A stretch of 64,000 nt of DNA. Source: Tetrahymena thermophila SB210 (Eukaryota; Ciliophora; Oligohymenophorea; Hymenostomatida; Tetrahymenidae). The position numbers and the translations under genes are program-made. The notes under the pieces were generated by a model. It searched no databases, was not told the origin of the DNA, and saw nothing but the letters and a program-made list of their open reading frames with translations. Where the stretch lies: NCBI RefSeq assembly GCF_000189635.1, contig NW_002476417.1, forward strand, positions 682,001 through 746,000, written 5' to 3'. Shown here piece after piece: positions 30,273-64,000 of this stretch (the first letter of the stretch is position 1; each line of letters starts with the position of its first letter).

Positions 30273-33200
30273 ATGCTTTTAACTTTTGAATATCTCATTT
30301 GCGTAAATATACCAGTTTGGGCTGGTATAATATTTTTGATTTTCTCTCATATTTAGTTCACTTCTAATACTCTGGAGAAGTGGTAAGCTTTAAATTATTC
30401 AGACTAGTTATTGCTAATAGCATAGAATTTATTAGTAATAGTATCTCATTTTTTAAAAAAGGGAAGAGCTTTCAACAATAGGAATCAAGAATAATGAACA
30501 GCAAAGACTTCACAATTTCGCTTTGAGCAATAAAATCTTTACAGAAAGCTTGTTTCAAAGTGTAATTTTGTTAAATGCATTGGTTTGTTTAAAAATACTT
30601 GTTTGAAATATAGATATCATAGGATTTAACTTAGATGATAAACTTTGTCTATAAAGATGTAAAATATTCTCAGAAATGTAACTCTGATATTAATATAAAA
30701 TCAAAATCTAATCTTTACTATAAAAATTTAGAGGTTTACAATGAAAACATTATGTGCTCAAATTAAAATTTCATAGATAAAGAATGTAGTAATACTTTCT
30801 TATCTCTTTATGAGCGAGATATGGTTTTAGTAGAATTATGGTTTCATGTCTTCAAAGAAGAATTTAATTTACTGAGTCCAAGTGAAGTTCAATTCTTTTA
30901 AAATGTAATTGATATGCTTTATTTTATAATATTCGAAAGTTTCTTGTTTTAAGAATTATAGTAGGTCATTCCTTTCTAAATCTATCTATCTAACTAGAAA
31001 AAATCAATTTATATCACCTGAATGGATTTATCATACTTTGAATACTTCTTTGATTATTTCTTCTCCAGCAAAGTATATCAATATATATCTAATAACTTCA
31101 AAGATTTCTATTTATATTATATTCTATTCTATATAAAGATTAGCAGATGGTAATGATAAAGAGTAAATATGTGAATAAATACTATTTAGAAGCTTTAGTG
31201 TATTTTATGATCCAAGATGTAGAGATTGGTATAAACAAGCTGTAAATACAGTAGGTAAAAATATATTCATCAAAACAATAAATTAATACTGAAAATTTTA
31301 TTTGTAGGTCAGATATTTACAAAGCCATATAAATTCGCTCTTGATAAAAAAGTAGGGATGACTTTATCTATGAGTTTAAAAAAACTGTTTTATTCTGTAT
31401 TCAGTATTGATTTCAGCATGAGCAATTTAGGAAACTAAGTTTTTGTCTATTAAGATAATTATGATGAGTCAAGCTTGTCAGAAGGATATACTGTACTTGT
31501 TCATTAAGATAATTAAACAGTAAAATTGATTTTTATTAACATTTGAAAATGAGAAAAAATTTATTTAAATTCATTTAGATATTTCATCATCGATATTGGA
31601 GTGAAGAGTCAAATACTTTGTATTCTTGGCCTGATATTGAATACAATTAGACTACATAATATAATCAAAAAGATAAAGAGGAATTTACTAATAAAATAAA
31701 AGAAGCTATTGATTTTAGTCAAACAAAGAATTACTCTATTTTAGACTTTTAGAATGTAGACAAATTTTTCATTAAGTTTAGGAAAAATAATCGAAAATAG
31801 TATGCTTATTTAATATATATATTTTTTTCATTATTAATTTGATTTATTTAAAATAAAGTGTATCTGTTTTATATCCTGTGGATATAAAGAGTTATTAATA
31901 TCCACAAAATAGGAGAACACAAAAAAGCTAAATTGTTTTATACGTTGGAAGAGTTCACTTTGATTTAAGTGGCTTGATTAATGATGTAATGATGAATGCA
32001 AAAACCATGTTTATAATTTTGAATATTGTTGAAGCTGTAATTGTCTTAGTAATAGTGATTGTTTCTTTTTTGCATTATGCAGCTGTGTTTATTAGAAAAT
32101 TAGATTTCTAGCTTGAAATTTTAATTTAGTATCTGAAGTAATAAGAAGAGAGCAGCTCAGCTTCTATAGTAAAATAGAGAGTAAAGAAAAATAGAAGATA
32201 CACATTTTAAATAATCAATTAGATTACATCAAATACATATGAAAGGAAGACTGCAACTTAATCTTATTCTAATTCTTAGAAATCAATTAAAGAAGACAAT
32301 AGAAATGAAAAAGCATTTCATACTGCCAGCAAACATCTAAAATAAAATAATATAACAAAAAGTAATAGCTCTAACCGTTTTTTTAAAAAAGTGTTTTCTT
32401 ATTTTTTTTAGTAAAGCAATCAGATAAACAAATTATAAAGTCTAAAGCAATTTATCTATGAAGATAGGATTAATATATATTAGATTTAGTACGAATTTTA
32501 TGAAATGTCCATTTTAATCAATTCATTTTAGCAACTAGAGAGTGTTATCAATTTAATTAAGAAAGGTGATTAGTAAATAGTGGGAAATATTTCTTAGAAG
32601 ATAATGGCTTCTTCTTCTGCAAAATAAGTATTTCATTCTGTAAATAATAATATAGGATAGGGATTTTGCTACTTTTAACTTGGCTAGTTATACTATCAAT
32701 AAAGGAAATATATTTAAGCAGCATAAAATTTTGAGTAATCTGTGAATAGTATGCTGATAGAAGTTAATATTGATGATATTAATTAACTCTCTTAGAAAAT
32801 ACTAAATGGGAATTTTAATGCTACTTTATATTAATGCTAAATCCTATAACAGAGATTATTTTTTTATGTTTTGAGCTAAAAAGAGTAAGCCTTGACTTTT
32901 GATAGATTAAATTTATCTTCTTCCGATTTAGAAAAGGAAGATGAAAAATAATCTAGAGAAATCCATTAATCGCTATAACAAAAGTTTGAAGAAATCAAAA
33001 AAAAACAAAACTAAATTAAAGATTAAAATTCTCTAAAGCCAATATAAATTATTATGAATGACGAACTAGCATCAGATAAGCATTTAATTACAGAATAATA
33101 AGATGAAATAAATTTAAATGAAAATGAAGATAGGGAAGAAGGTTTCTATAGAAATAAGTTTGATAATTAATAAATAAGCCTTTTATAACAAAAATTTAAC

Positions 33201-35543
33201 AATTAACATGACTAAAAATCTATTAAATTAATTAATTAATTAAATTTAACGTTATAAACGAAGCAAAATACTTTAAACAACTGCTTTAAATATTGTGCTA
33301 TTTTCTTAAACATTTGCAATTTTATTAAAAAGAAAAGGAATTAAGAATATCAGTTTGAATCTGGTACAGAATTTTCTTCAAATTATGTAAAAAGCTAATC
33401 TTAGCAACAAAAAGAATTGTTAATGTTTTTAGAATTAGGAGAGATTTACACTCACATATCTAACTTCGAATAAGCATCTTATTATATCTACAAAGCTGAA
33501 AAATTAATTTTATTTATTGAATAAAATTTTTTAGCTAATTAAGATCTAATTGATTTTTTCTAATCCAAAATTAATTATATCTTTGGTACTATTTGCATTA
33601 AAAGAAAATTATATAAATTAGGCTGTGAATGCTTGGCATCTTGCCTTGAGGATACTTTGATTCAAGAAGCTACTGTTATTTAAAGGAGTTTAATATAAAT
33701 TCAACAAGTATTTGAAATGTTTGAAATATCAACAAGTATAATCGAAAAATAAATAAAAAAATTTTAATTTTTAGAATTTTAATCAGATTCATCAATTCTT
33801 TAGCCATATTTTTTGTGTAAAAATGGGAATTTACTTTAAGAGACAAAAGAAAAATAAGGGCTAATAGATTTTTTAATTGTATTTGAAATATTACCATTCG
33901 AATCACCTGAGTAAATGAATATTTAAAAGCGAATATCAACATGGATTCAAAAAAATTATATTTGTAGTAAAGATAGGCTTTATATTTCATTTTACTGCTG
34001 CAGTAAGCTCATATTAACATTTTAAGCTAAAGATTTTTTAAATGATAGATACTTTGACCTATGCATTTAACAGTTAAGAATTGAATAAATAAAATTAATT
34101 AAAGAATATCAAGTTTCAAATCCTGATATTTTGAACAAGACTAATAAAGAACTTTCATTAGAATATAATTCTAAATATGAAAATGGGTGGTCTTATATTT
34201 TAATTTCCTCATTAGAATAATTTTTCGAAACTTAAAATTCATTAAGTGATTAATTCCTCTTTAAGGAAAAAAATGCTTTCAAAGACTCCAAATTAATTGA
34301 TAAAGCTCAAACAAATAAATATATATTAAGATAAAATAGTAAACTGAGTTAAGCAAGTTAAGGAGATTTAGATTTTAAATAATACTTAAAGCAATAAAAT
34401 TCCAAATCATCTGCAAAATTTTAGTTTACTACTAACTAATATTATTAAGATAGATAGCTAATACAAATTTTGTTTTCCTTTCATAACTAAAAAGAAGTAT
34501 TGGATTTAAATTTTTTGAATAAATTTAATTTATTAAGAAGTAGCTATTCCAGAAAAAGAATAAAATAAATAGTACTATAAATTCCCTTCTTATAAAATAA
34601 ATCTAAACTTAATGTTAAAGATTCAAATACTTGTAGATAAAAATACAAAAAATCTTTCACTTTTTATGAATAAAATGGATTTGTAAGTAACCAATAAAGA
34701 AAAGAAATTTATGATGAAAATCAACTAGAAAAAGTGTAAAAAAATTAATCATAAAATTAAGAAATTTAAAATTTGTAACCCAGCTTTTTTAATCTGTAAA
34801 AAATACAATAACTAGATTATTTGTAAGATGGAAAATTCAATTTTTCAGAATAAAAAAATATTAACACTGAGTAAAAATTCCTATCTAGCACAAGAAGCAA
34901 TTAAACTGATCAATTTATTTTTAGGAGTTTTAATTAAGAAATAACCTTATCACCCAAAAAAAATAACAAACCTATTAATATCTAAAATTAATAATAAAAT
35001 AATCTTTATTTTGATAATTACAATAAGAGTTCAAATAATTAAAAATAAATTAATTCTCATCATTGCACCAATAAAGAGTACACACATTAAGAAATTTATG
35101 ATTAATAGCGGTAAGTGTAATAAAATAATATAGAAGACAAAAAAGCTGTTGTTTGTTAAATTAATAGATAATAAAAAACCATGTAAAATAATTTAGGATA
35201 AAAAGCAGAAATAAATATAATAAAAAGTAATATACCTTAAGATAAGGTAAACCATCTTACTGATGACAGTATAAATGCTGAACGAAAATTAAATTTTATT
35301 TTCAATTAGCAAAAAACGTTAAAGGAAGAATACTTTCAACAAAATAAAAATAAAATTGATCAAAGAGATCTTTCTCCTTATATTATTCTAGAAGGAAATA
35401 AACAACATGAAGAAAAGTAAATAATAAAAAATCTAAAATTAAAATTCTTTACTTCTGAACTTTAGCTCTTTTAGTATTTATTAAAAAAAAGATAATCTTA
35501 TTCTAATATGCAATTTTAAATGATAAATTAAATTTTTGAATGA
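30273..35543 (+). CDS. Cache-domain transmembrane receptor-like protein, paralogue A
   Basis: Start at the ATG at 30273. Exon 1 (to 30382) encodes the first membrane helix (YLICVNIPVWAGIIFLIFSH) and ends inside Trp of EKW. Then come NNEQQRLHNFALSNKIF, the double-Cache ectodomain with SLIISSPAQ, FYDPRCRDWYKQA, KPYKFALDKKVGMT and VFSIDFSMSNL, GYTVLVHQDNQTV, and FHHRYWSEESNTLYSW. A second helix (IVLVIVIVSFLHYAAVF) is followed by a long Gln/Asn/Lys-rich tail with helical, TPR-like stretches (LELGEIYTHISNFEQASYYIYKAEK) and a weakly vWA-like end (FTSELQLFQYLLKKR). Several short introns; exact set not resolved. Inferred topology: both termini cytoplasmic, Cache domain outside. The vWA part is the most degenerate of the family. 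Confidence 0.75.
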
Positions 35544-36162: not shown

Positions 36163-39100
36163 ATGAAACGTGTTATTGATTTCGCTAAGATAGTGTGTTC
36201 AAAAACAAACTCAAAATCATATTGCTTAATACCTAAATTCAATATCATCCACTAGGTTTTTGGTAGTATATGTATTCCTATGGTTTTAGGTGTAGCAATC
36301 CTCTTAATTGTATAATATTAATATACTTAAATGGTTATTGAAAACTGGTAAATAATAAAAATACAGTCAAACAGCATTAAATTTGGTGCTATGTATTTCT
36401 TCAAATAAAATCTGTCCATTTTATAGTAGTATTCACCTTATAAAGGGTAGAATTTTATTGCTATTTAAAATAATCTTAAAGGACACCTTCATATTTTTTC
36501 CTAATATAGAGGAACCCGATTTACAAGGGCACCAAAAATTAACAAGATTTGACTCTATTTGATAATCTTTAGAGCTAATTTATTTATAATTAAAACTAGG
36601 AAATCATTGAGTGAAGATTCTATCATGGTTTTTGAAAAACAGAAATTATATAATTATGTATCTGCTAACAAGGCTATTGCTGATATTTAGTTTTAAGATG
36701 TAATTATTTTAATTTGAAAATAACTTAGAAAGTATTAATAACAAACAATTTATTTCTACCTTTTAACAGATATCTTCAGATATATATGTGCTCTCTAAAT
36801 TTTATAATAAAGTTTAATCAGGCTAAGTAAAAAGTATTTAATTTTTCTGTATTTAACTCAAATTATCTATTCATCAACTCATACACTCTTTCATTCATTA
36901 ATAAGTTAAAGAAATAATTTATTCATTTATTTATTTATTTATTTTGATTGTTAATAATTAATTTTTTAGGTAACCCAAATTCCTTGTATTAAAAATGTTC
37001 TATGAGAGATTTTCAAACCAGTAATTTAGAATGCCCTCAGCACATTCAAAAAGAATATTCACTTAACAGAAATTATGTAGATTTATGGTTTCACAGGACA
37101 GCACATATAGAAAGTTAATTAAATCCTATTGAAAAGAATCTTCTATAAACTGTAATGCCAAATATTAACAATTTATATTTTTTCAATATTCTTTATTTTC
37201 ATCCACAAAATTAATTAAATTTTTTTAATTTCTAGAATTTGGTTTTTATCACGCTAGCTAAAGGATTTTATTCTGTAAGGAAAAATTCTTTATTAGATGA
37301 ACAGTGGATTTATAATACCTTTAATAATTCTTTGATGATTGGATCTCCTGCTAGGTAAGTTTATATTTCAGCTATAGATATATAATTATTATTAATTTAA
37401 TTATAAAAAGTACAATTTCTTTAGACTTTTATTATTAAGACTGTATGTAAGGTAAATATTAAGAACCTTACGATCCCAGATGTAGACCTTGGTATAAGTA
37501 AGCGATGCAAAACGAAGGTATTAATTAATTAATTATTTGAATATATTTTTGTATTTTCTTTATTTATTATTTAGGTATTTAATTTGAACAACCTTATGTT
37601 TATGCTTTCGATAACTCAATAGGCATGACTTCTTCTAGTAAAATTCTAGATGGGAATAATTAAATTTAATCGGTTATTAGTATTGATTTTGGAATCACTA
37701 ATTTAGTTAATGATGTATTCTCATTATAAGATTAAAATGATCCATCTAGTATTTACGAAGCCTATTCAGTTTTTTTTCACAAATAAAATAGGACAGTATA
37801 CATAATTTATTAACGCCTCATATTTTTTTTAAATCTTTCTTTAACTTACAGATTTTTTATCACAGGTACTGGAATAGATCAAGCGGAGATTTGTATAATT
37901 GGGCAGACTTAGAATATAATGAAACATCAGGATATCCAAAGAGTGAGTCAATAGACTTTTCAGATTAGCTTACAAAAGCAATTCTTTAATCAAATTCAGT
38001 AGATAACTTTTACAATTTTAACTAAATTTAAAATAGCAGTCTTTTTTTGAATTTTGCAAAGAATGATAGAAACTAGTAAATTTATTTTTAATCATTTATT
38101 TAAATTAAAAATCATCTTTAAATTCTGTTTGAAGGGAAATTTAATTTTAATTTTTTATGTTATTTTATTAAACTTACAGTACTGCCTTGGTATATCCAGT
38201 TGAAGCTTATTCTGTAAATTAAAAATTGTAAATTGAAATGATTTAAGTGATGTTTATAGCAAGAGTCCAAAGAAATATTGTTGATTTAATATTACAAGAT
38301 ATTTTAAAATACAATAAATTATTGGAGGCTTTAGCAATAGTCGAAATATGCTTTGTTAGCATAATATTGATCATAAGCTTATGTCATTTTACAGCTGTCT
38401 TAATGCATTAAATTGCAACTCCGCTTGATTAACTAACAAATTTCTTGAAGCATAGTAGCCTCCTTATTAAGCAACATAAGACTAATGAAATTGTATAAAT
38501 AAATAATTAGCTTTAAATTCATTAAAAACAACCACAAATCAACTAAAGCCTAGCTTTTTCAACTTAATTAAGATTTCATTAATAAACCATTTTTTCTTAA
38601 TAATTAAGAGATAGTTTTGCTTCTAATCAAGCTTTAAATTGTTTTCCTGAATATTGTAAGAATAAATATTTAACTATACCTTAATAAATTAAAGATAAAT
38701 CATAGTTTAAATATAATTCACCTTCTCCAAATTTTTAACCCTTCACACTAATTACTAGGCGATTCTCTAATACTGATTTTAAAATGGATAATTAACTTTA
38801 TTCATTACCAACAAAGAATCTAGATAACGATAAAGCTTTTTCTCCTAAAAAAAAAGAAACTCAATTTGCTTAAAAGTAGAGGAGATTAACAGAAAACTAA
38901 TAATAAAACAGCAATAGAAATAAAGAAACCTAATTAGAATCTAGCATTAAGCTTATTGATTATTATAATTGTTAAAAAATGGGAGATATTTCATAACTGA
39001 AGAGTTAATTCAAAGAATTTTCTGTGATTAAAAAGACATTTAAAATTTTAGCAAATATAATTTAATTTTAAAGGGAAGGCTTCTATGCTTCAGATAATAC

Positions 39101-40976
39101 CGAAAGTTTATTAAAATTTACGAAAGCATATAAAATATTCAATAAAATATAAAATTAATAAGCTTTAGCCTTATGCCTATATAATATTGGAAAATTGCAT
39201 TCTGAAAGTAGAAGATACAACGAAGCGACAGAATCTTATTAATTATCTTAATAAATCTGTCTTTAGCAACTTGGTTATAACGATGTCGTTTCCTTTCAAA
39301 GAGCCTTACAATAAGGCAATATTAATAATGATTAATTTTATTTGAACCTCTTAAAAAATACTTGCTAAAACTTTGGTTTATTACTTAAATAACAAGTTTA
39401 AGATAGCATAATATCATAATAATCCATTAATAGTGTTAAAAGATCAGCAAAAAAAAATATTTAAACTTTTGATCCTAATCAAACAATCTAAGACTATGAT
39501 TATTCTAATTTGCAAAAAGAATTTATAAAAATAGCATCGCTTTCTTTGAAGCTTTTGTAACTAACAATAGATTTAGAAAATAAATCAAATCCAATAAATA
39601 AATTTAATTTATAATTAACTTAAACTGATATAGCTGAATTGCTAGTTTATTTAGGAGATGTTAGTTAATCCCTCATCAAAATAAATTAAGTACAGGATTA
39701 GTTGTATTATGAAAACAATTAAGCTTCATGTAATGAAGAAATATAAATTTAATTGCAATTTAAAAAAGAGAATAAAATTTATTCTCAGCAATTAAACCAG
39801 CTTGAAACAAATTTTCTCTTTATAAGAGGAATTATATAAATGAAGAGAAGACAATATTTTCAAGCTGCTAATTTATTTACAGATATGATTGAAAATTCTA
39901 TTTCATGCGATCCTTAAAAAAAATTATTAGCCCTCTCAATGATTCATATTTGCTTTTTTAATGCTTAGTTAAATACAAAGAGCATTTTAAAATTTTTGCT
40001 TAAAGAGCAACATATTTATTTTGACAGCTTACTACAATCAGCTTTATTAAATAGATTTTAATTACCTCCATTAAATTCTAGTGCTTAAGATAAATAAGAA
40101 CTATGCTAGATTGAGTAAACATCGTTTGATGTTTCTCTAATATTTTAAACTCCTTCTTTCTAGTCTTAAATATAAAAAGAGTTTGAGAATTATCAATTAA
40201 ACTTTCTTGATTGGCTGATCAAGTTTTTTTTGCAACCTTAAAAAGATAGGTTATCAATTTTAAATTGTTATGAGGAAGATCAAGAACCATTTTCAAGCTA
40301 AATAGATACAATTTAACATTTAAGTGTCTTTTATGGAGATAAGACATTAAAAATTATAGCACAAGAATATTAAAGGTTGTATAAAGAATTTTAAAGTAAT
40401 CTATTTCAATTATAAAATGATTAGAATAAATAAAATCTTGATAAAAATAATATAACACCAAAAAACTACTCAAAAATTTGTATTAATTAAATTTTAAAAT
40501 GCCTGAGTAATTATATTCAAGATTAAAAATATCAAAATTTAAAAGCAAATTCATCATTTTAATATGATTAAAGGTAAATTTAAAAGAGCAGGACTCACTT
40601 AATAATATATTTTTCAAATTAGTAGTTGAATTAATAATTAGAATAAAGTTCATTCTAAAAAATACTTTAATAAATTTAATTATAAAATAAAAATATGAAG
40701 CATAAAATAATAATAATAAAACCTATTGATTTGATTAGTTTTTAGTACAATGAAAAAAATGAAGACCTAATAAATAAGGTATTTTAGGAAAGAATAATAA
40801 ATATATTTAAATAAAATTAAACTACTTTGATTTAAGAAAGCTAGATATTAAAGCAAGATCCAATTTTTATTGAGGGAGGTATTAAAATACATTAATATGA
40901 ATCTGTGTCTCAATTTAAAATGTATCTTTTGAGAAAGAGAATGAATCCCAAAGCTATTCAATATCTAAAAGAATGA
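36163..40976 (+). CDS. Cache-domain transmembrane receptor-like protein with TPR and vWA-like tail, paralogue B
   Basis: The ATG at 36163 gives a longer polar N-terminus than its paralogues (MKRVIDFAKIVCSKTNSK) before the first helix (FGSICIPMVLGVAILLIV) and the splice site in Trp of ENW. Ectodomain: NNSLMIGSPAR, PYDPRCRPWYKQAMQ, QPYVYAFDNSIGMT, VISIDFGITNLVNDVF, YSVFFHKQNRTV, and FYHRYWNRSSGDLYNWADLEY. Second helix SIILIISLCHFTAVLMHQI, with HFTAV where others have HYAAV. The cytoplasmic part has TPR-like units (ALALCLYNIGKLHSESRRYNEATESYQLSQQIC) and a vWA-like end (DRLSILNCYEE, later RTHLIIYFSN), finishing FKMYLLRKRMNPKAIQYLKE. Function inferred: ligand-sensing receptor with a protein-binding output. 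Confidence 0.8.
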
Positions 40977-41814: not shown

Positions 41815-44800
41815 ATGGGTTATATAATGTAATTTATTTGTATTATTTCTATTCCTATAACTATAGGAAGCGTAGGATTGTTAATTTCTTACTACTATCT
41901 TTTGCAAAGTGCTCTTAGTTAATGGTAGGGTTAAAAAATTACTGTTTATTTATAGTGTTTAAACATCTTTAAATTCAATAAAAAAAGGTAAGAAATCAGT
42001 ACTCAACAATAAATATATTTTGAAAAACAGCGTCTCCATAATTATGTTTATTTGAACAAAATAATATCAGAACTATAGTATTAAGCAGTAATTACATATT
42101 TTGAATTTATTGACATACATATTTATATCATTGCAACAACAATTTATTTAGATTTATACAAGTAATAAAATAATTTTTATATAATTCATCAACTAATTAA
42201 AAGCTATCTAATGACATGACTACTTTAGAGGCCATTTATAAAAAAATAGTAAATTAGTAACTGATAAGTATACATATTATTTATAATGATTAATTTATAT
42301 TAAATAACAATTTTTGGTAATTAGAAAGCAGCTAATATCGATAAAAGGAGTGCTCAGTTATAGCTTAAAGCATGAACTTGTGCCCACTAGATATAAATGA
42401 AGAATAAAAAAAAAACATGAATTGGGTTAATCTGTGGTTTCACAGGGAAATACTTAAATCCTAAGACTTATAAGACGATGAAAAACATTTCTTTGAATTA
42501 GTAGAAATTATTTATATTCTATAACAATACAAACATTTATTTTTTTAATAGAATAAATACTTTTAATTCTACACAAGATCGATTTATGATTATAGGAAAG
42601 ATTAGTTATTTATAGCCACTTGGATTTATAACACTTACAATACTTCTCTGATGGTGGCTGCTCCCGGATAGTAAATGATAAATTCTTGATTTAAATAAAA
42701 ACATTTACACAAAATAACAAAGTAACGTGTAATTAAATGTAATTAATTAATTAGGTCTTATAATTATACTGGAATCACTTTTTAAATTTGTTAACCTGGT
42801 AAACATATAGTTGATTATGATCCAAGATGTCGTTCTTGGTATCAACAAGCTCTTTAATAAGAAGGTATAATTTAATAATACAATAAAAATTAATTTAATA
42901 TAAAGAAATATAAAAGGACAAGTATTTATAGAGCCATATTAATTCTCATTTGATGGAAACATAGGTATGACAATATCAACTAAGATATTTGACGATTTTG
43001 GAAATATGTTATCAATTATAAGTATCGACTACGATATCTCTGAATTGATAACAAATATTTTTCAACCTTAAGACTAATAATAAGTTGGAGACTAAGAAGG
43101 ATATACAGTATTTTTTCATGAAAAAAATATGACAGTAATTAATTTATTTAATGATTAATTTATTCTTAAATTTATTTTATAATAAAATGAACTAAAAAAA
43201 ATATATAGATTTTTTACCATAAAAATTGGAGTAGATTTTCTAAATAAACTTTCAGTTGGCCAGATTTTGAATATCTCTAAAATGAAACCTATCCTAATAT
43301 GTAAAAGGATAAAGCTTCATTTACTCAGCAAGTGTCTGACAGCATAAAATTTGCTCATACCTACAACTATTCCATAGAAAATATGACAAATATTGATAAT
43401 TTTTTTCAATCTTTTGAGAAGGATGGAGTAAAATAGTAAGTTATTAATTTAATTTATAAACTATCCTAGTAAAGAATTTTTTGAATATTCAACTAATAAG
43501 TTTTAGTTTAATTTACCCTATATAAGTGACGAGCGTCGTATATGCAAATAAAAACAAAAAGAAAAATTAAATTGTTATGTTTGTAGCAAGAGTAAATCGA
43601 GATTTGAGATATATTTTCCAAAATCAAGGAGTTTTTAACTAATTTGATATATTGTTATTTATTTTACAGTCTTTTGTTATATTGTTTATAATATTTTGTG
43701 CTGTCATGCACTATGCAGCTGTTTTATACTATTAAATTGATATTCCTCTCAGAATGTTATAGGCATACTTTATGTAAGAACTCACTAGATAAAAAATAAT
43801 CAAATTTGGATAACAGACTAGGCAAAAAGAACATAATCTTTCAAAAAAAAGCGAATTTAAAAAATTAAGTGAAAAAAAAGGAAAAATCTTAGAGTCTATT
43901 AATCAAAAAGATCAAGGGATAGATTTAAACGACTAAGATAGTCTTTAGCAGTAGTTATTTAATTACAAAGATAAAAAATTTATGTCTGACAATATTAGTA
44001 AAAATAATAATTATAGTGGGTACTTAATGCAAATTAATTAAGAAAATCAATTTTAAATATTATAATATTTAGGCAGTAAAAATACAATAAAATATAATAA
44101 CAATTTTTTATTTTAATAGTTATAATAAAAAGATAATTTTTTTAATGCATAGCTTCAATCCCCTTAAAATTAAGAATTTAGTTTTTAAAACAATATTACA
44201 CAACATTTATAAAACTCCCCAACTAAGTTGCTTTTCTATAATTAACAGGTTGATTAAACGTTAAATGATACTAAGTGTTACTTTTTTAAAAATAATATTT
44301 AAAATTAAAGGCTGAATAACTAGTAAAATCAACAAATTCCATAATCATAAAGTTAAATTTAGTCTAATCAAAATTTATTCTTTAATTAATAAAACATATT
44401 CAACTAATAAGATCTAGTTACGACAGCACCTATTTAATCAAATAAAAATTCTAATGAAAATAATCCTAAAATTAAATAAAATGTTTAGTGCTTAAGTCCT
44501 TTAAAGTAAACTAGAAGCATTCACCAATCTCAGTATTATTACCTTTCATAGAATCCTGAGTTAGCATCACAAAATTAGCGCTTTTAATAGTAAAATGGAA
44601 TTAGTAAGTATTTATACTCAGAAACAAGTTAGCATAAAGGGAACTACAATATGGGTAGCAAGACAGATAATTTCTCTTAGAATATTTTCAAACTAAACCC
44701 TTCTCCTAGGAGAAAACTAACAGGAAGTAAAGGAAGGATGAATGCTAATCGCAAAATTTAAGAAAAAATAGAAGAAAGGTCTTAAAATCAAATGATATCA

Positions 44801-51700: not shown

Positions 51701-54700
51701 AAAACAATCCTCAATAGTTATGTATGTTGGAAGAGTTTAAAATGATATAAGTGACCTTCTTTAATCGAGTTCATGGGAAAAAAGAATTACATATTTATGC
51801 AATTTTTTATAACCATTTTTAATTTTAGTTATTATATTTGGTTGCATCATGCATTATGCAGCTGTGTTAGTTTTTAGGATAGAAGTACCTATAAAGCTGC
51901 TTAAGACATTTATTAACTAGAGAGTAGATAAATATGAAAATGTTAAAAAAGTACCTAACAAATCGAATTTTGATTAATCTGAATGCTACAACTGCCCTAC
52001 AAATAAACCAGCAGATCGTAAAAAAAAATAAATTGATAAAATGAATAATAACAAATATAACTATGACAAAAACAATTTAATGAACACATCTATTATACCT
52101 TTAAAAGGGAGAAAATCATCATTAGAAAGTGGAAATTAGCAATCAGAAAGATTTATTAAACAAGTAGCACTGAGAAAAAATACTAGCCTCATGATTACAT
52201 GTGATAGAAATAGCGAAAGCTTAAATCAATTAGAAAAATATGAAAATGATAAAGCTTACTAAAGTCAATTAGTTACAAGTAATTAAATTCCCTAGCAAAA
52301 TTAAATTTTTACCACATAAATCTAAAGTTAAAACTCCTCTCCATAACACACTTTAAATTAAAAAGTAAAGCAACAACATATCAATCGCTACTTAATTTAG
52401 TTAAATAGCAACAAACTCCTTAGGAAATCGAGTGATTCTCAAATATAAAAATACAATTAATAACACATATTTTCTCACCTTTGCCTCAAAACGAAATAAT
52501 ATTCTCATGGACAGTAGTGCGAGGAATAAGATGAATAATCAGAAGTAGATAGCACCATAAATTAACAGTAGTAGAATGGTAACGATTTAATTACTAACAA
52601 AGAAGAAAAATCTGAAAGAAAAGATTTACCTTCCTAGCAAAACAATCAAGCTTTTTAAAATTCTATATTCGAATCTAACCACCCTATTAATATTATTCCT
52701 TATCAGTAAACGCCTCGTCTTGAAAATGATAGAGATGAAGAATTTTTAGAGCTTAACAAATAAGCTGCTAGAACTAATAGAAGCAACTTGAAAAAGTTAA
52801 GCTTATATTATAAGGAGAGTTAATAATAAGCAGCTATTCCTTAAACTTAAGTTAATCAAATAAATGAATCTGATTAGTAGAAGAAAAATTCACCAGCTAA
52901 AAATAGCACATTCTCATTTAAGTCAAATGATTAAATCACTCTACAAACAAATTAATAACCAATTCTAATTGATGATAATAAAATTGCAAGCATAACTCCA
53001 CTGACTCCAAAAGATTTTCCTGATAACTAAATATCAAAGAAATAAAGTGACTCTATTCACTTTAGTGAAAAGACTGCTTAAAAGTTTGAGGATGCAATCC
53101 TACGAACTGAAATAGAAAAACAAGTTAGTAATTATCTAATCACTGACATCGAATAGCAATGCTATAATTAGGTACCTGAAAATAATATAAATTTTCATAG
53201 TAATGGAGTAAGAAAGGAGGTAGTTGAATCTATAAAATTTGAATCAAAGCAAATAAAAGGTATTAACTTTCTCCAAAGAACATAGCAGTTTTTGAAGCAG
53301 TAGCTAGCTTAAATAAAAGAAAGTGCTAAATAATTTAAGGCATCAATTACTCCTAGACAGCAGCAGGGTAAAGACATTGAAAGTAATAATAACATAAAAA
53401 TTCAGTTAAAAACCATTTAAACTCTTGATTCTTCTGCCCAAAGAAAAAAAGAAGCTGTCTTGAATGAAGACTTAACACCAATTTATAAATAAAGTTCGTA
53501 ACAACAATAACAATATGAAGTTACTCTACTTTAAAATGAGTTTGATGTTGAAGAGTTTATGTAGCAATAAAACCAGGAATTTGATACTGTTGTTAATTTG
53601 GAAGATATCTAAACCTATTCACATGAAATTGAAGTCATTGTAAATACTTTTAAGCATTTATTTGGTGTGATTCACTATATGGAAGAAGGGTATGAAAGAG
53701 AAGATTTTGCTTCCTCATTGTTTAGCTTGAATTAAGCAGTTACTATTTTTAAATATATAAATAATATTTCTGCTGTAGGTATGGCCTACTTTGACATCGG
53801 TAATCTCTACTTCGGCTAAGAGAAATTCGAAGAGGCTATCGAAAGATATAGTATATCTCTTTCATGTGGATTTTAGTAATTTGAAGTGACGTCAATATCT
53901 CATTTTAATGAAGTTCTCTAATCAGGATAGCTTTGCTTCGATTATTACTCTCTTTAGTAGTTCTTTAATAGACTCTATTTTATTTCTCTTTCTTTCAAAG
54001 AGCTTGCACTTTCCTTTCATGATGATATATAATTAATTGGTAGAGATGCAAGGAGTAATTACTTGCTCAGATAAGCAGTCCTACATTTCAAAACTTGTCT
54101 CAGAGTTGGTACCTATTTAAAGAAACACTAACAAGACTCATTTAAACTACTAGAAATTATTATTTTTATTCATATTTACTTGAGTGAAATATTTGTCTAT
54201 TTAAATGAAGATATCTTATCTGAGTGCACTTTAAAAGAGGCTACTAGAAATTTTGAATAACTTATACTTAAAAACAGATAAAAAAACTTATTACCAAAAG
54301 GATGTAACTCCCCTTCTTAAAAAAGAAAATTATCAATATTGAGAACCAATAATCCTAAGCAAGATTAGTAGATAATTGAAGAAACCTATATTATTCGTAC
54401 AGCTTTCTATTATATTAGAGGTGTAATCTAAATTAAAAAGGGTTTAATAAAAGATGGTTGCAATTCTTTAACAAATTACCTCGAAAAATCACAAACTTAA
54501 CAATACTAAAAAAAGTCTCTCTATTTTTTAAAAAGCATATTCAAAAAGGAAAATTTACCTACATATTTTATAGAGAAAAGAATTGAAAAAATTGTACCTA
54601 TATCTTATGATATCTATGTCCTTATAGATATTTAAGAGCTATCCTATTCATCATCTTACCATCAAAGTCTATAGCTAAAAATACTTTAAAGATTTAAGCA

Positions 54701-55717
54701 AACTTTTGTTAAGACAGATGATAAAGTTTGTATAATTTTGTACAACTAAGAATTTCAAGTTCTTTAACCGCTTATGATCTTTTAAAATAACAAGCACTGG
54801 GAGATTTGCTTTGAAAACATCAAGTAAGCTCTAAAAATCTAAAGAGAAAAGTCAGTGTCCATATATTTCTAAAATAGCTTTGAAGACTAATCTCCTATTT
54901 TAATAAGAAACCATAATGTAAATGGATTAAATTCTCCACTAGGTTTGGTCTAAGAGAATTAATCTTAAAGCGATCATCAATAATCCTAATATACCGAATG
55001 GGAATCGTCAATATTCAAATCCCTTAAAGAGATGTCACTTCAAGAAATAGCAGTACCGTTCGATGTATCTTAAGTAAAAAGGAAATCTATCCTATTTTCA
55101 TTTTATTTCTCTTAGCACTCTCCTATAAGCAACGAAAGCAAATTTATATAAAATTTTACAACTCTCCTTGATACATTCCACAAACAGCCAACCGTTATTA
55201 ATTTCTTTAGTTCAATAAAATAAGATACACCTAGTCAAATGACAGTTTCATAAAAAATTGTAAGAAATCACTAAGAATCTTCTAATTCTATGTTGATTTA
55301 AAACTAATTTAATACTCAAGGATCTTTTTAAGATCACATGCATCTCACAAAAATAAATAGATAACCAAGAATTTCAATTAATAAAAACCATTTAATGAAT
55401 AATGCTTAGTAAAAACATAGCTTTTTAAACACTCCTTCAACTTTGCAGGGCTAAAATTTTAGAAACAGAGAAACGACATATGATTTGTTTGAATAATAAC
55501 AATTACAAATATCTCCTAAGCAAGATAACAAAGATATGTTTAGAAGATAGGAAACAATGCCCTTAATTAGCAATACTAAAATTATGTATGAAATACCTAA
55601 GACTAAAATAAAAAAATTTCATATATTTACCAAGGAGCAAGATTTGTTTACTTATCTTTTTTATAAAAGAACCGAAATATAAAACTTTTACATTTTACAG
55701 AGAAGATTTTTCAAATG
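48737..55717 (+). CDS. Cache-domain transmembrane receptor-like protein with TPR and vWA-like tail, paralogue D (longest)
   Basis: The ATG at 48737 begins MGIVFQFICSISIPITTGSLF; exon 1 ends in Trp of VEW. Ectodomain: NIEKQRLHNYAYLDKVITE, NGYDTSQMVSFPA, TYDPRCRLWYEDSLQ, IPYKFAFTGVIGMTIA, VLGLDYDLQNLIENIF, LGYTIFFHPLNNTV, FFHKDWNNLDSMSVTWEDLEY. The second helix is PFLILVIIFGCIMHYAAVLVF. A roughly 600-residue Gln/Asn/Ser-rich linker follows. Then comes a clear TPR unit (VGMAYFDIGNLYFGQEKFEEAIERYSISL) and more helical pairs. A well-preserved vWA-like domain ends the protein (YDIYVLIDIQELSYSSSYHQ; DDKVCIILYNQEFQVLQPL; KRKSILFSFYF). The vWA metal site (DxSxS) is not intact. Two introns are unusually large (50019-50529 and about 51069-51643). 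Confidence 0.82.
50019..50529 (+). other. 511-nt intron in paralogue D
   Basis: It splits the Cache domain after SLQNNG, at the position where paralogue C has an intron of about 50 nt. The extra length is AT-rich sequence without a frame or repeat that I recognise. Confidence 0.6.
51069..51643 (+). other. About 575-nt intron in paralogue D with an imperfect hairpin
   Basis: It lies between the Cache domain and IAIVYPVIVRQ before the second helix. The insert has a near-palindrome at 51421-51440 (accttagct / agctgaggt, 8 of 9 pairs) and a C-rich patch at 51348-51355, unlike the flanking DNA. It might be a decayed insertion; no terminal repeats were confirmed. Confidence 0.4.
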
Positions 55718-56386
55718 AAAAAAAAAATTGTTTATCTCATTTCAATTAGCTAAATAAAACCAAAAAAATAATTACAGTAGCCTGCCTTATGAACTTTACA
55801 TTTGTACTTTATATTTTTAAAAATTGTAATAAATAAATAATTAATTAAAATATAATTAAATTAAATTATTGTATTGAATATATAAAAAAAGATGATAATT
55901 AATTACATGTTGTAGACGAATTAACAAAAGGATATATATCTAAAGCTTATTTGAATATATTCATTTATTTTTGCGCTTTTAAATTTGAAAATTTATTCTA
56001 AAAATGTATCAAATCTTAATTTACCATTTGAGCAAATGATTGACAATTAAATAAAATAAATTATTAATTTTTGATTAAATATTTTATCTATTTAGTTTTT
56101 TTAAACGCTTTGATGCAACTATCATTACAGAATTTGAAGACTAAAATTGTATTTGATATACTTAATTAGTATAGATTAGATTTGTTAATTAACATAGTTT
56201 GAGTAACAACCTCAATTTTTTAGTGGTGATATTTAATTAAAATGGATTTATACATTTCATTTAAAAATAGACAAATGAAATTACCAATTTATTATGTTTT
56301 TTATCATTTTAGAGCAAAATCAAATAATTAATAGATTTCTCATAAAAATTTCAAAATAAGCTAATTTAAAACTCATAAAAAACAAA
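55718..56386. other. Intergenic between paralogues D and E
   Basis: 670 bp of AT-rich DNA; nothing recognised. Confidence 0.6.
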
Positions 56387-59300
56387 ATGAGATGGCTAAT
56401 ATACAAGCTAATTATATCAGTATCCCTCCCAATCATACTTGGAGTAGGAATAGTATTAGCAATATTTTATAAAAGTCTGTTTAATGCTCTCCAGCAGTGG
56501 TAATCCATCATTTATATTTTTTTCATACGCCTATCATTTATTTAATTTATTCAATAATAGTAAGTACTGCTAATTTTAATATATTTCTAAAAATCTCCAT
56601 TTTAAACTACTTTTATTGGTAAAATAACTAGGGAATAAGATAGTAATGTATGGATTCATTCAACGCAATAATAGTTATTACACAATTCAGTTTTCTCTCA
56701 ACATTTAATTGAAGAATATAGCTTCAACCAAGTAATAATTACTTTCTAGAAGAATATTAACTTCTAAGGAATTAAAAAATAATTTATTTTACTAAGCTAA
56801 TTAATCAAATATCTATGACAAAAGATGTAATTACATATGGTGATAATGAAGAGCCTTTATAATTAGTATTAAAACAATAAAATTACCAGTAAAAATTTAA
56901 TTCTACTTTACAATTTATATCAATGAAATTTAAAATAAAATAGTTAATTAAAAAACAACTTTTACAATCTGCTCATATAGAGAACTAGCTTTTAACCAGT
57001 GTCCAGAAAATGTTTATAATCAATTGAATTAAAACTAATTTTATGCTGACTTATATTTTGTTCGATAAGTTTTTAAATTTGATCTACTTACTCCTCAGTA
57101 ACAGTATTTTATCATTATGGTAAGTAAATTCTTTAAGAATCTATAATATATTAATATAACAATTAATAGAATGATTTTTTGTCATTTTATGGAAGGGCTG
57201 CTTTCTATTCATCTCAAATTAGTTAAACTCTCTTGCAAATTATATTTATATATAACGCAGATACTACTTCACTTGAGTATGGAATTCCTTCTGGGTAATC
57301 CAATTATAATAAATATATGTATTACTGATCAATGATTTATTTATTTATTTAAAAGATTCTATAATTACACACAATCAGATTTTGAAGATTGCTTTGGTAA
57401 TAATTTTATTGAGCCTTTTGATCCAAGATGTAGGCCATGGTATAAATATGCATAAAACCATTAAGGTAAACCATCCTTTTAATATACATCTAATTTATCT
57501 AAATATTTTTATATTAAGGATATTTTTTTTATGAGCCATATATTGATGCTATAATGGGAAATTTACTTATGACCCTCTCAAGCTAAGTTAGAGATAGTTA
57601 ATAAAATTTTTATTCTGTAGATAGTATAGATTTTAGTATGTAAAGCATAGTATAGTAATTTAACTCAACTTTAAATGACAATGCATATTCGGTATTGCTA
57701 CATGAATTTAACAGTACAGTAAATTTTTAGTATTTTTATAACAAATTCGTTTTTTAATTTATAGAGTAGGGTGGGTGAAAATATTAATCTTTATTTTAAA
57801 ACGTTATATTTTTAGAATTTTTTTTATTTTTTTAAAAAAAACTTACTAAAAATAAAAATTTAAAAATACCTCTAAATAAATAAATATTTTTATTTTCAAT
57901 TAATTTAAAATAAAAAAATATTAAATTATAAAATAGATTTTTTATCATCCTTTATTACAAAACTCAAGTCTAGAATCTTGGGGAGATTTAGAATTTTAAA
58001 ATATAACAACAAATTGCTAAAGCTTAAGTGAACTTTAAGATTGCTTAACTGAAAAATAATAATTTGAGTAATAAGTAAATTAAAGCATATTATTTATATA
58101 AAATGGGGAATATGATATTGATAATCAGATCAATACAACATAAATGTATCAGTATTGGTCTCGATATGGTGTAAAATTGTAATTAACAATATATTTTTTA
58201 ATCATAATTAATATCCTTTTCGTTTAGAATAAGTTTAGTTTACCCAGTTAAAAGTACTATTAATGGCATAAATACTTAACTCCCTTATTCATTTGCTACT
58301 ATACTTACTGCTAGAGTTATTAAAGATAATAGTGATAAACTGAAACTGTTCAATCTTTTTAATGAAAACATAATTGAAATACCTTTAATTATAGAATTTA
58401 TTATAATTAGTATTTCAGTCTTCTTATTTATTTTTCATTATGGATATTTTTTAAAGCATCAGATATAACATCCTATAGAGTTACTTATAATTTTTTTAGA
58501 AAGAAGTCTGATGCAGTAACAATCTTGTAACTAATTTCTTTTAAAAAAAGAAAAGTGCAATATAATTCGTAAAAGTTAGCTGTATTCAAATAAAAATGCA
58601 AATTAGAAAGTAAATAATAGAAAAAAAGGCAATACAGATTAGGATTTTTAAAATTAAAACTAAATTATTGATACTCCTTTACTAACATCTGGGAATAATG
58701 GATAAATATTTAATTTTCTAAGTCTAGAAGAGAAAAAAAATGATGAATAAAGAATGTTTACACTATTATCAAAAAATAACTTATTGTACCCTTAAAACCC
58801 TGAAGAAGAGGTATTAATAGAAGAAGGTGAAAGAATAGCTTAAAAAAATAATAAACCTTCAAATCTAATTAATAATTCGAAAACATTAATGAACACATCT
58901 CATAGGAAGTTAAATTAATAAGAATAAAATATTCAGAATAGCCCAGGATAGCATTTATTTTCCAATTAATATGAATCTCCTTATTAAATAACTCAATCTT
59001 AAAGAGGAAATTCCCCTCATTAAATAAAAACTTTAGATGAATCTGTATATAGTTTAGGATAAAATTCGAAAAGTAGTGGCGGTTATGATTACATCAACAA
59101 GCTAGAACGAGAATAAATTAATGACAAAGAAAATAAAAACAAAATCTTAAATGGCTTGTAACCCATGTTTAAGGAAATGGAAATTATCAAAGAAACATTT
59201 TAAAATCTTGAAAATTTAATTAATTATCAAATTGATGCCTATACTCAAAACTCTTAAGATACTATGAATACTTTATTTCACTTTAGCAAAGCCAAATCAA

Positions 59301-60946
59301 CATTTTAAAAGTTGTAAAATGAATTAGGTTTAGGTCGTTGTTACTTTAATTTAGGAGTAATATACTTGTTAAAATCGGAATATGATTTAGCTTCTGAATA
59401 ATTTGAATCAGCCTTAATGATAAATTTACGATAAATCGGAGTAGACACAGTGGAAGAGATTAATGACAAAATATTCTTAACCTTTGATAGCTAAGAGGAC
59501 GAATTAACTCTTTTTTGCAAGAGAATATTTTCGCTGGCTTATTGCTTAAAATCTTAAGCCTTTTAGTCAATTTATAAATAAAAAGAAGATATTAACTCAA
59601 ATTACGCTTATGACTTTTCTCAATACTAGGAAGTATTTTAGGTATATAATCAATAGAATAAATCTTTGCTTAAAAAATCTTTTGATCTTTATGAAATCAT
59701 TTAATAGATCATTTTTAACTAAGGTGAACAATTTTCAGATTTATTTAAGCTTTATTTGTATTAAGAATAAATAGAAATTGTTGAATACTTAAACATTTTT
59801 GTTAAACTGCCTTAATATTTGGAAAAGTCTAACTTTTTGCTAAAAAAAATAAGTAAACATAATTTAAGTACACCTATGCTTTAATCTCAAAATAGATAGC
59901 ACAACTAGACAACCAACAGAACTAGATTTTCTATTGATGAAAGTCAACATAATAAGTTGAATAGTTTTAATAAGCTAAATAATAACCTAATAAATATAAT
60001 TATTGAAATTCTTAAAAGTAGGTAGAAATTCTTGCTTGGAAAAATTGAAAGAAAGAAAAAAAACTATGTCAAAGCAATAGAGTATTTAACTTAAAGCCTA
60101 GAAGAAGGGACACACTACAATCCTTTCTAAAGAAAAATAACTCTCTAAAATCTTAATGAATTGTTTAAGTTAACTTCCCTAAAATAATAAAATATAACTA
60201 TTGAAATAGAAAGCGAAGAATAAAGTAATCCAATCGATATATTAATATTGCTTTAATTAGATTCAATTTTACAGTTGTACACATTTGAAACTTGTATTGA
60301 ATATATTAAATAATCAGATTTCTTTAAATAAGGCGATAGGGTAATGATTATAGTCTTTAATACTGATTTAGAAATATTTATGCCATTTACTGAAATAAAA
60401 AACGAAAATCATTGGAAATTGGTTATAAAGTCTCTATAAAATTTATTCATATAATTAATCTAAAATCCTAATCAAGATCAAATTTAGTTGAGCTGGTAAG
60501 ATGCTCTATACTAGTCTTTAAATTACATATATGATTTTAAAATATGGGATTAATACCTAGCAAATGAGTTTTAAAAATATATTAACAATTAAAGCATTTT
60601 TAATTATACTTAAAAAGATATAATAGATCTCATTAAAAAACAAAAAGGCTAATTGCAAAGAAAAAAAATTGTCCTTCTTTTTTCAAGAGAATAAGATAAT
60701 TGGTAATAAAATAGAGATTAAGAAATTTTAATTAAATAAAAAATACTCAACTTACCAAAGCCAATTGTCTATCACATGAAAGATTATTAACTTATTGATA
60801 ATGATTAAAATCAATTCAAATCTGAGTGCTATGTTTATGAATCATTTTAAGAAGAAATTTAATTCGTTAAAAAAGTAAGTCGATTAAGAAATATTGAAAA
60901 ATTTAATCAATAATATGAATTTTTGTCGATTCTTAATCACTCTTGA
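56387..60946 (+). CDS. Cache-domain transmembrane receptor-like protein with TPR and vWA-like tail, paralogue E
   Basis: The ATG at 56387 begins MRWLIYKLIISVSLPIILGVG; exon 1 ends in Trp of QQW. Ectodomain: QQQLLHNSVFSQHLIEE, DTTSLEYGIPSG, PFDPRCRPWYKYAQNH, YEPYIDAIMGNLLMT, VDSIDFSMQSIVQ, AYSVLLHEFNSTV. Phe replaces the Tyr that all other copies have before DPRCR. Second helix region FIIISISVFLFIFHYGYFL. Cytoplasmic TPR-like unit LGLGRCYFNLGVIYLLKSEYDLASEQFESAL, then a vWA-like domain with DILILLQLDS, QGDRVMIIVFNTDLEIFMPF and KKIVLLFSREQDN, ending at TGA 60944. The linker is shorter than in C and D. It has a probable spliced gap around 57770-57930. Confidence 0.82.
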
Positions 60947-61840: not shown

Positions 61841-64000
61841 ATGAAAATAAATTTTATATGCCAATTAATACTATTAACTTCATCCTCAATAATATTTGGA
61901 GTTGTTCTCATTTTATATTTGTTTTATGACAATTTGTTTAACTCTCTTTTATAATGGTAAGCATTAAAATAAATTGTTTTCCATATTTATTAAATACCTA
62001 ATTTTTAGCATTAAACTATCTAAAAATTTAGGGAAACAGAGAGCAGAGCTTGGATAACAGCCACAGAGTAGCAGCGCTTGCATAATTCAGTTTACTCAAA
62101 TAAAATCATTTCTGAATAAAATACAAATAAAGTAATTTTATATCATAATTGATAATTAAATAAAGTAGTTCTCTAACAATTAAAACCTAAAAAAATCAAG
62201 CTTTATAGTCAAATGTATTACATGAAGCAGCTTATAAAGAAGTTCAAAGCCAAGAAATATTAAAGTATTTATTTTTTTTTATTCATTTTGATCTTAAAAG
62301 CATAAATGAATGAAATTATATAAAAGAATTTTAATATTTAAGCAAACTAGAAAGCAAGCAAGCAAGAAAGGATTAATTAATAACTTTTGTTTTTATAAAT
62401 AGTTATTAATCCTTGTCAAAAATTTAATAAGCTTAAAATCAAAATACTTGCAATATTTATTTTTTATAGAAAATTAGAAATCCAATTTTTTAATTTGCTC
62501 TTATTATGAATACAATCACAACTTGTGTGGAGAATAAGTTTATAAATAATAAAAAACCAATGAATTGTACGTTGATTTATATTTTGAAAGAAATAGAAAA
62601 TAATACAAATAGCTTGATACCTAGCAAAAAGAATTCTATGACATGGTATTGTTTATTATTAATATTCTTTTTTATGAATTTACTTATTTATTTATTAAAT
62701 TCTATATTCATTCTCATTTACTTATATACTTATTAAACTTTAATTAATTCTTTTATTTAATTACTTATTAACTTTTTTATTCATTCTTCATTCATTTCTT
62801 CAGCCATCCATCCATCCATCCATTTATTTATTTAATTTATAATTATTTTTGGTATTTATTTTTTAACTTAATTTAAAAAATAAATAAAAGAACCTTGATT
62901 TCTCATTTTTACCAAATGCAATATATAATGATGCTAAAAGAAATTCTCTTTTTAGTGTTAGTTTTATTTATAATGCTGATGATACTTCTTTGATGGCTGG
63001 TAGTCCTTCTTTGTAATTAATTGATTTCATTTATAAAATTAGAAAACAATTTAATAATTTACTAAAAGGATAGATAATTTCTCTGATGCTGAATATTAAA
63101 CTTGCAAAGGAAATAACTACCCAGAACCATACGATCCACGGTGTAGACCTTGGTATATATACTCTCTTTAGCATTTAGGTATTATATTATAGGAAAGATT
63201 AATTTTTAAATTATTAAACAAAAATAAGTTTGATTTTTTTCCAAATTTACAAATAAAACATCATTAGAAACTTTTAATTATTTTTAATTGGTTTATGATA
63301 GCAATTAATTATATAGAGAAATGAATTATTAATAGTTTTGATTATAAAAAACAAATAATTTAAAAATTATAGGTTATAATTTTTATAAGCCCTATGTTGA
63401 TGCAACGAATTTTAAAGTTATAATGACAGTTTCTTCTTAAGTTTAAGATTAGTAAGGAAAATTTATATCTATTTTAAGTATTGATTTTGGTATAGATAAT
63501 CTGATTAATAGTGTGTTCGCACAGTAAGATTAAACAAACTAATAGGCTTTTGATTAATATAATGTTCTTCTCCATGAAGATTAAACTACAGTATTTATTT
63601 ATTTACTTACTTTTGTTTTAGATAGTAATTGGCATATATTTTAATAGGTTTTTTATCATAAATTTTATGATAATAATTCTGGAGTTTTAAAATCATGGGG
63701 AGATATTGAATTCAGTGGGTTATTTAACTATACCAATGATGAAAAAATAAGCTTTTAAAAATAAGTAAATGATTCTATCTAATTTATGAAATCAGGTAAC
63801 TATTCAATTTAGGAATACTAAAATGTTCTACCTCTATTTTAATATTGGACCAGAAACGGACAAAAATAGTAATTAATTAATTTTTACTTGTTAATTCATA
63901 TTATGATTTAAAAATTATCAAGTGAATTCTTCATTAAAAAAATTAATTTCTTAAATAATTAGTGTGAGCTTAATATATCCAATAATAATGAACAATAACC
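61841..64000 (+). CDS. Cache-domain transmembrane receptor-like protein, paralogue F (3' part outside window)
   Basis: The ATG at 61841 begins MKINFICQLILLTSSSIIFGVV; exon 1 ends inside Trp of LQW, with an intron at 61957-62031. Then come WETESRAWITATEQQRLHNSVYSNKIISE, a long AT-rich intron region (about 62200-62930) holding a CCAT microsatellite, NADDTSLMAGSPS, PYDPRCRPWYIYSLQH, YKPYVDATNFKVIMTVSS, ILSIDFGIDNLINSVF, NVLLHEDQTTV and FYHKFYDNNSGVLKSWGDIEF. The window ends as coding resumes just before the expected second helix (SLIYPIIMNN). All Cache signature residues are kept. The cytoplasmic half must lie to the right. Confidence 0.78.
62803..62830. repeat. CCAT microsatellite inside an intron of paralogue F
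   Basis: Five tandem copies of CCAT followed by a TTTA tract. It lies in a non-coding stretch between the QQRLHN region and the Cache domain. Confidence 0.9.

What the first reader, a model, noticed from the sequence alone, without database searches (positions are those of the whole stretch)
30273..64000. Six tandem receptor-like genes that all carry the amino-acid-sensor signature of dCache_1 domains
Every copy has YDPRCRxWY in the ectodomain (F instead of the first Y in paralogue E) and, about 41-43 residues later, the Asp of SIDF/GLDY. As I recall it, the amino-acid-binding signature of dCache_1 sensors in bacteria and animals is a Tyr, then five residues on Arg-x-Trp-Tyr, then an Asp some 44 residues further. 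The spacing Tyr(-5), Arg(0), Trp(+2), Tyr(+3) is met exactly. This predicts that a ciliate has a clustered family of amino-acid or amine receptors, perhaps for food sensing or signalling. Seen: motifs and spacing. Known: the signature. Inferred: ligand class.
Basis: partly seen in the sequence, partly recalled or inferred. Interest (0 to 1): 0.88.

Follow-up and report, generated by a model that had tools for sequence, protein, structure and literature searches.

The report
Ciliate amino-acid-sensor-like receptor gene cluster
Six neighbouring genes of a ciliate, a single-celled eukaryote, encode probable membrane receptors whose outer part carries nearly the same ligand pocket as bacterial amino-acid sensors, so they are good, testable candidates for amino-acid detectors.

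Summary
Six tandem plus-strand genes (30273-64000; the sixth cut by the window end) each encode an ectodomain with YDPRCRxWY (F first in E) and an Asp in SIDF/GLDY. On my spliced models the Asp lies 42, 45, 45, 46, 45, 45 residues after the Tyr of WY, not 41-43; PctA has 44. All six also carry the motif's second aromatic at +15, as PctA. The published amino-acid expression matches 5 of 6; A misses by one residue. A profile of the six finds PctA as best solved sequence (E 1.5e-11), Asp aligned with D173. Pfam dCache_1's cut-off is met by 0 of 6; PF22673's by 4 of 6 trimmed modules. The kept Arg argues against amine sensing. PctA's D146 is kept in E and F, aromatic in A-D, matching the tree. The cytoplasmic side shows TPR repeats and no catalytic domain above cut-off. 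Best reading: bacterial-type amino-acid receptors on a eukaryotic output. The ligand is untested, splice sites are predicted, and no full ectodomain model was possible.

The parts
30273..35543 (+). Receptor gene A: short N-terminus, hydrophobic anchor 1, dCache-like ectodomain, hydrophobic anchor 2, cytoplasmic TPR region; motif YDPRCRDWY 31206-31232, PY Tyr 31328-31330, Asp 31409-31411
   Evidence: Spliced model; codon coordinates; stop after the long exon
36163..40976 (+). Receptor gene B: motif YDPRCRPWY 37469-37495, PY Tyr 37595-37597, Asp 37685-37687; start codon uncertain (nearest in-frame ATG upstream of the first anchor)
41815..47419 (+). Receptor gene C: motif YDPRCRSWY 42816-42842, PY Tyr 42937-42939, Asp 43027-43029
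48737..55718 (+). Receptor gene D: motif YDPRCRLWY 49970-49996, long predicted intron 50019-50529, PY Tyr 50550-50552, Asp 50643-50645
56387..60946 (+). Receptor gene E: motif FDPRCRPWY 57417-57443, PY Tyr 57539-57541, second Asp (D146 position) 57545-57547, Asp 57629-57631; clearest TPR repeats
61841..64000 (+). Receptor gene F, cut off by the window end: motif YDPRCRPWY 63130-63156, PY Tyr 63393-63395, second Asp (D146 position) 63399-63401, Asp 63483-63485
37518..37574 (+). Example of the predicted phase-1 intron that splits the ligand motif at the same place in all six genes (others: 31255-31307, 42865-42916, 50019-50529, 57466-57518, 63179-63372)
60224..60943 (+). C-terminal cytoplasmic region of E: weak, sub-threshold Pfam matches to TIR_3 (E 0.012) and VWA_2 (E 0.032); identity not settled

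Best explanation
The six genes are a tandem family of cell-surface receptors built like bacterial chemoreceptors on the outside: hydrophobic anchor, dCache-type ectodomain, second anchor. The distal Cache module probably binds a free amino acid: Tyr/Phe, Arg and Trp hold the carboxylate, the PY Tyr and the SIDF/GLDY Asp hold the amino group. Binding would shift the second anchor and a short segment after it (IxxPLxxL, HAMP-like to my eye), changing the arrangement of a cytoplasmic TPR region that recruits partners, since no catalytic domain was recognised. E and F keep a second acidic contact (PctA D146); A-D have Phe/Tyr there, which probably changes side-chain preference or affinity. Shown: gene order, motif residues, spacing on predicted splicing, homology to PctA-like domains, TPR match. 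Inferred: ligand binding, topology, signalling, any role in finding food.
For: Profile of the six ectodomains against solved sequences: PctA best, E 1.5e-11; 17 of 19 listed are chemoreceptors, sensor kinases, a cyclase sensor or CACHD1; the Asp falls on D173 and the PY Tyr on Y144 (numbering by my count along the printed alignment). Copy F alone finds 7k5n (E 9.7e-8), CtaA and PctA. The published motif [YFWL]x4[RK]xW[YFW]x13-17[YFW]x27-34D, whose six tested bacterial carriers all gave amino-acid binding (PMC11237719, passages), matches 5 of 6, and A with a gap of 26. The set R126, W128, Y144, D146, D173 was found in 1535 of 18970 dCache_1 domains (PMC7584622, passages); E and F have all five, A-D four. 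PF22673 above cut-off in 4 of 6 trimmed modules. Motif count 6 against 0.075 expected. Arg, Trp, Tyr, PY Tyr and Asp invariant among paralogues 26-44% identical. TPR above Pfam cut-off in E; a profile of the five cytoplasmic parts finds designed TPR proteins (best E 1.5e-29 over repeated matches).
Against: No binding data. Pfam dCache_1 cut-off reached by 0 of 6, PF22673 missed by A and F, and by untrimmed A, the one untrimmed member whose scores were shown. The proximal Cache module was not recognised. The exon-piece model is weak (pLDDT 66.5); 0 of its 876 Foldseek matches have E <= 0.001, TM-scores among the 50 listed are at most 0.35, and LOV/PAS domains mix in from row 17 on. A misses the published spacing by one residue. 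D146 is lost in A-D. PctA also binds AI-2 with the same pocket.
Confidence: 0.66

Rival explanations
1. The domains have the amino-acid pocket by descent but sense another small molecule that fits it, above all the bacterial signal AI-2 (or a carboxylate), so the ciliate would track bacteria by their signal rather than by free amino acids.
For: PctA binds AI-2, and mutation of each of nine pocket residues, Y121, R126, W128, Y144, D146 and D173 among them, lowered AI-2 affinity (PMC7584622, passages). A PctA complex with MHF, an AI-2 form as I recall, is among the structure hits. E and F have the whole five-residue set.
Against: A-D lack D146. Docking scores in that paper were better for L-Met, L-Ile and L-Trp than for AI-2. 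In PMC11237719 six of six tested motif carriers bound amino acids.
Confidence: 0.13
2. The motif is a structural relic: DPRCRxWY and PY hold the Cache fold or a subunit interface, and the receptors bind no free small ligand.
For: The Trp/Tyr pair is shared with purine and amine sensors, and the second of the pair is structural. Pfam scores are low.
Against: The Arg and the Asp are ligand contacts; D173 corresponds to Gly in the purine sensor McpH, yet both are invariant here in six divergent copies.
Confidence: 0.15
3. Biogenic amine receptors (dCache_1AM-like).
For: Asp and two aromatic positions are shared with amine sensors.
Against: All six keep the Arg and the first aromatic, both said not to be conserved in the amine motif.
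Confidence: 0.04

Closest known systems
PctA, PctB, PctC amino-acid chemoreceptors of Pseudomonas (PctA is the type case of dCache_1AA)
   Same: Distal Cache pocket: Tyr/Phe, Arg, Trp, Tyr, +15 Tyr, Asp near +44, in register with PctA in the printed alignments; two hydrophobic anchors around the ectodomain (seen by eye in the models)
   Different: Eukaryotic, intron-split genes; conserved ectodomain cysteines (three columns 6 of 6, one 5 of 6); TPR region instead of a chemoreceptor signalling domain; D146 lost in A-D
7k5n, Aeromonas diguanylate cyclase sensor with proline
   Same: Best single-sequence hit of copy F (E 9.7e-8) and first structural hit of the exon piece (E 5.7e-3)
   Different: Output is a cyclase; none recognised here
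Animal alpha2delta and CACHD1
   Same: Eukaryotic dCache proteins; alpha2delta-1 has the same motif, also split (PMC9901441, passages); CACHD1 is a profile hit (E 1.6e-5)
   Different: There an extracellular VWA domain is inserted inside the motif and alpha2delta is GPI-anchored; here an intron, not a domain, splits the motif
Animal mGlyR/GPR179 receptors
   Same: A ligand-binding Cache domain on a eukaryotic receptor (PMC12716839, passages)
   Different: Seven-membrane-span receptors with an EGF-like domain; motif not compared here
dCache_1AM amine and dCache_1PU purine sensors
   Same: Family and the conserved aromatic pair
   Different: Amine sensors do not conserve the Arg; the purine sensor McpH has Gly at the Asp position

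Membership tests
dCache_1AA (universal amino-acid sensor) | Motif [YFWL]x4[RK]xW[YFW] | tested here: met
   6 of 6
dCache_1AA (universal amino-acid sensor) | Second aromatic after 13-17 residues | tested here: met
   PY Tyr with 14 residues between in 6 of 6 spliced models; depends on predicted splice sites
dCache_1AA (universal amino-acid sensor) | Asp after 27-34 further residues | tested here: inconclusive
   5 of 6; A has 26
dCache_1AA (universal amino-acid sensor) | Sequence homology to solved amino-acid dCache domains | tested here: met
   PctA E 1.5e-11 with the profile of six
dCache_1AA (universal amino-acid sensor) | Pocket residues face one cavity in a structure | tested here: inconclusive
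   Only an exon piece with an intron-encoded insert could be folded; pLDDT 66.5, no Foldseek match at E <= 0.001
dCache_1AA (universal amino-acid sensor) | Binds amino acids | not testable with these tools
   Needs purified protein
Pfam PF02743 dCache_1 | Score above curated cut-off (45 bits) | tested here: not met
   0 of 6; best 24.7 bits, no match listed for D
Pfam PF22673 MCP-like PDC_1 | Score above curated cut-off (27 bits) | tested here: inconclusive
   4 of 6 trimmed distal modules (B 29.1, C 33.7, D 27.7, E 27.7); A 24.3 and F 23.9 below; untrimmed A 20.2
dCache_1AM (amine sensor) | Arg position of the amino-acid motif not conserved | tested here: not met
   Arg in 6 of 6
alpha2delta / CACHD1 | Extracellular VWA domain | tested here: not met
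   None between the motif halves; no VWA family listed for the six ectodomains at E up to 1
VWA domain (cytoplasmic end) | Pfam VWA score above cut-off | tested here: not met
   Only E matches, 15.3 bits against 27, and TIR_3 scores slightly better there (16.1 against 26.1); A, B, D none; C's end not scanned apart, whole cytoplasmic part of C none
TPR protein | TPR score above cut-off | tested here: inconclusive
   E above cut-off (33.1 against 27.8); A, B, C, D below

The most novel reading that the evidence does not exclude
Ciliates have expanded a bacterial-type amino-acid chemoreceptor into a tandem gene family in which the dCache_1AA pocket is coupled to a TPR scaffold (perhaps with a degenerate VWA-like end) without kinase, cyclase or channel, and the copies divide amino acids among them, the D146 position separating two ligand classes.
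Probability: 0.45. Interest if true: 0.8.

Novelty: new variant of a known kind. Interest (0 to 1): 0.6.

Why it matters
Paramecium is attracted by bacterial metabolites including glutamate, and for its L-glutamate receptor a review names an NMDA-like candidate from a thesis (PMC8964087, passages). A receptor family with a recognisable amino-acid pocket gives direct candidates and point mutations to test. It would also add a non-animal eukaryotic receptor family with this pocket: a 2016 survey describes Cache in Metazoa as mostly limited to alpha2delta and as limited in plants and fungi, and holds Cache in eukaryotes to be due to horizontal transfer (PMC4822843, passages).

Tried and rejected
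Amine sensing: rejected on the conserved Arg. alpha2delta-like channel subunit: rejected, no extracellular VWA insert. Cytoplasmic fold: AlphaFold on E with four paralogues gave pLDDT 39.3 and was not used for a fold search. VWA identity of the C-terminal end: not proven; a direct search of solved sequences gave only two weak, unrelated hits. Relatives elsewhere: 56 pattern matches in viral contigs and 7 in prokaryote genomes, 0 confirmed as relatives; the motif pattern used there held the Cys of DPRCR, so bacterial relatives with another residue at that place would be missed, and no eukaryote collection was available, so spread among ciliates is untested. No tRNA (bacterial-code run) and no Rfam match in the window. 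Terminal introns that the aligner put into the cytoplasmic part of B (38455-38553) and D (51951-52107) were set aside, because the long frames are open without them. Literature: 'ciliate' with 'dCache' 0 papers; 'Cache domain' with 'ciliate' 7 and with 'Tetrahymena' 2; of these I opened one, PMC12716839 (passages), which is about GPCRs; two searches showed nothing on this family among 12 listed papers each (one search held 16,455). Listings were used to choose papers. Only open-licence papers are covered. The paper that defined the motif (Gumerov 2022) is not held; I know it from papers citing it and from recall, and cannot say whether it lists ciliates.

Full report
What was given and what is there. 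The window is AT-rich (18-34% GC in 2-kb steps) and its long frames appear with TAA and TAG read as Gln, as in ciliates with NCBI table 6; no genome is held for it and the species was not determined. Six copies of YDPRCRxWY lie on the + strand at 31206, 37469, 42816, 49970, 57417 (F first) and 63130. [YF]x4RxWY occurs nowhere else in six frames; 40 dinucleotide shuffles gave a mean of 0.075 and at most 1. The looser published first half is much less telling: 10 observed against 2.9 expected, at most 7.

Gene models. The ectodomains are broken by short GT-AG introns. I wrote a spliced protein-to-DNA aligner, started it from copy C and iterated with a profile. All six regions gave collinear models with a phase-1 intron at the same place after WYx7G, so the ligand motif is split over two exons in 6 of 6. 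The Tyr-to-Tyr spacing across that intron rests on predicted splice sites, least surely in D with its 511-base intron; the other spacings lie within exons. The N-terminal third of the ectodomain (alignment columns about 60-140) is poorly aligned and introns there are doubtful. Each copy has a hydrophobic stretch close to the start, and A-E a second one before the cytoplasmic part; this is by eye, no predictor was run, and F is cut at the window end. The ATG of A is at 30273, the start of the finding. The cytoplasmic parts of A-E read as single long frames ending in TGA; two introns that the aligner placed there in B and D were set aside.

The motif. Counting from the Tyr of WY (PctA Y129): the PY Tyr is at +15 in 6 of 6 (Y144 in PctA), and the Asp of SIDF/GLDY at +42, +45, +45, +46, +45, +45 in A to F; PctA D173 is at +44. 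The motif as written in PMC11237719 (passages) matches 5 of 6; A has 26 residues where 27-34 are given, through a shorter loop before the last strand. The position of PctA D146, one of five most frequent pocket residues in PMC7584622 (passages), is Asp in E and F but Phe, Tyr, Phe, Phe in A to D. The tree of the six puts E with F apart from A-D (100/100) and C with D (100/97); it is rooted at the midpoint, and A and D have long branches. In Campylobacter Tlp3 the mutation D169A lowered affinity for lysine and other ligands but did not abolish it (PMC9769880, passages; that D169 matches D146 is my inference from spacing), so A-D are not excluded as amino-acid sensors.

Family. A profile of the six finds 19 solved sequences with E up to 10: 17 are chemoreceptors, sensor kinases, a cyclase sensor or CACHD1, led by PctA at 1.5e-11, and 2 are unrelated and weak. 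In the printed alignment DPRCRpWY, PY and the SID Asp fall on PctA's DPRSRPWY, PY and GGD Asp, which by count is D173. Many of the structures matched by fold hold amino acids: methionine, tryptophan, isoleucine, GABA, glutamine, proline, serine, arginine, glycine (titles). Pfam is weaker: PF22673 is above cut-off in 4 of 6 trimmed modules and dCache_1 in 0 of 6; untrimmed, A reaches no cut-off (scores of the other five untrimmed members were not shown). The proximal Cache module was not recognised.

Structure. The piece of B from before the motif to after the Asp, with its intron-encoded insert, gave pLDDT 66.5. In Foldseek 14 of the 16 top rows are crystal structures of bacterial dCache sensors and 2 are integrative models with McpB; LOV and PAS domains mix in from row 17, no match has E <= 0.001 and TM-scores are low. 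This supports the family weakly and does not test the pocket geometry. The cytoplasmic model is unusable (pLDDT 39.3).

Output side. TPR models match E above cut-off and A-D below it; a profile of the five cytoplasmic parts matches designed TPR proteins through one repeat. Beyond the TPR region E has a stretch that reminds me of a VWA domain (DRVMIIVFNTDLEIFMPF), but the Pfam match is below cut-off and in E alone, and a TIR_3 match in the same region scores slightly better, also below cut-off. A direct search of solved sequences found nothing convincing. No catalytic domain or channel was found above cut-off. The segment after the second anchor (HYAAVLxxxIxxPLxxL) looks HAMP-like to me; no Pfam match supports it.

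Mechanism and rivals. In published docking of dCache_1AA domains the first Tyr, Arg and Trp contact the carboxyl group and the second Tyr and the Asp the amino group (PMC11237719). Equivalents of all of these are present here (Phe for the first Tyr in E). I therefore favour amino-acid receptors, at 0.66. AI-2 is a real rival because PctA binds it with the same residues. Amines are unlikely because the Arg is kept. A ligand-free structural role cannot be excluded.

Novelty. The pocket is known; the title of the defining paper speaks of bacteria to humans (seen in a reference list). What appears new in what I could search is a tandem eukaryotic family with this pocket on a TPR-type output, divided at D146. 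The searches behind this were made, in open-licence papers only.

Noticed in passing
12267-14495 and 15404-17386, minus strand: Two neighbouring protein kinase genes (Pkinase E about 2e-69), 74% identical over 363 residues.
   Followed up: no
6602-8407, minus strand: Sec7-domain gene (E 1.7e-30).
   Followed up: no
21592-22716, plus strand, and 22000-26000: Clathrin heavy chain segment at the edge of a locally GC-richer stretch (0.34 in 22-26 kb).
   Followed up: no
Ectodomains of A-F, alignment columns 149, 161, 256, 272: Three Cys columns conserved in 6 of 6 and one in 5 of 6 (D has a Cys one column away), including the Cys inside DPRCR, where PctA has Ser. Possibly two disulphides.
   Followed up: partly
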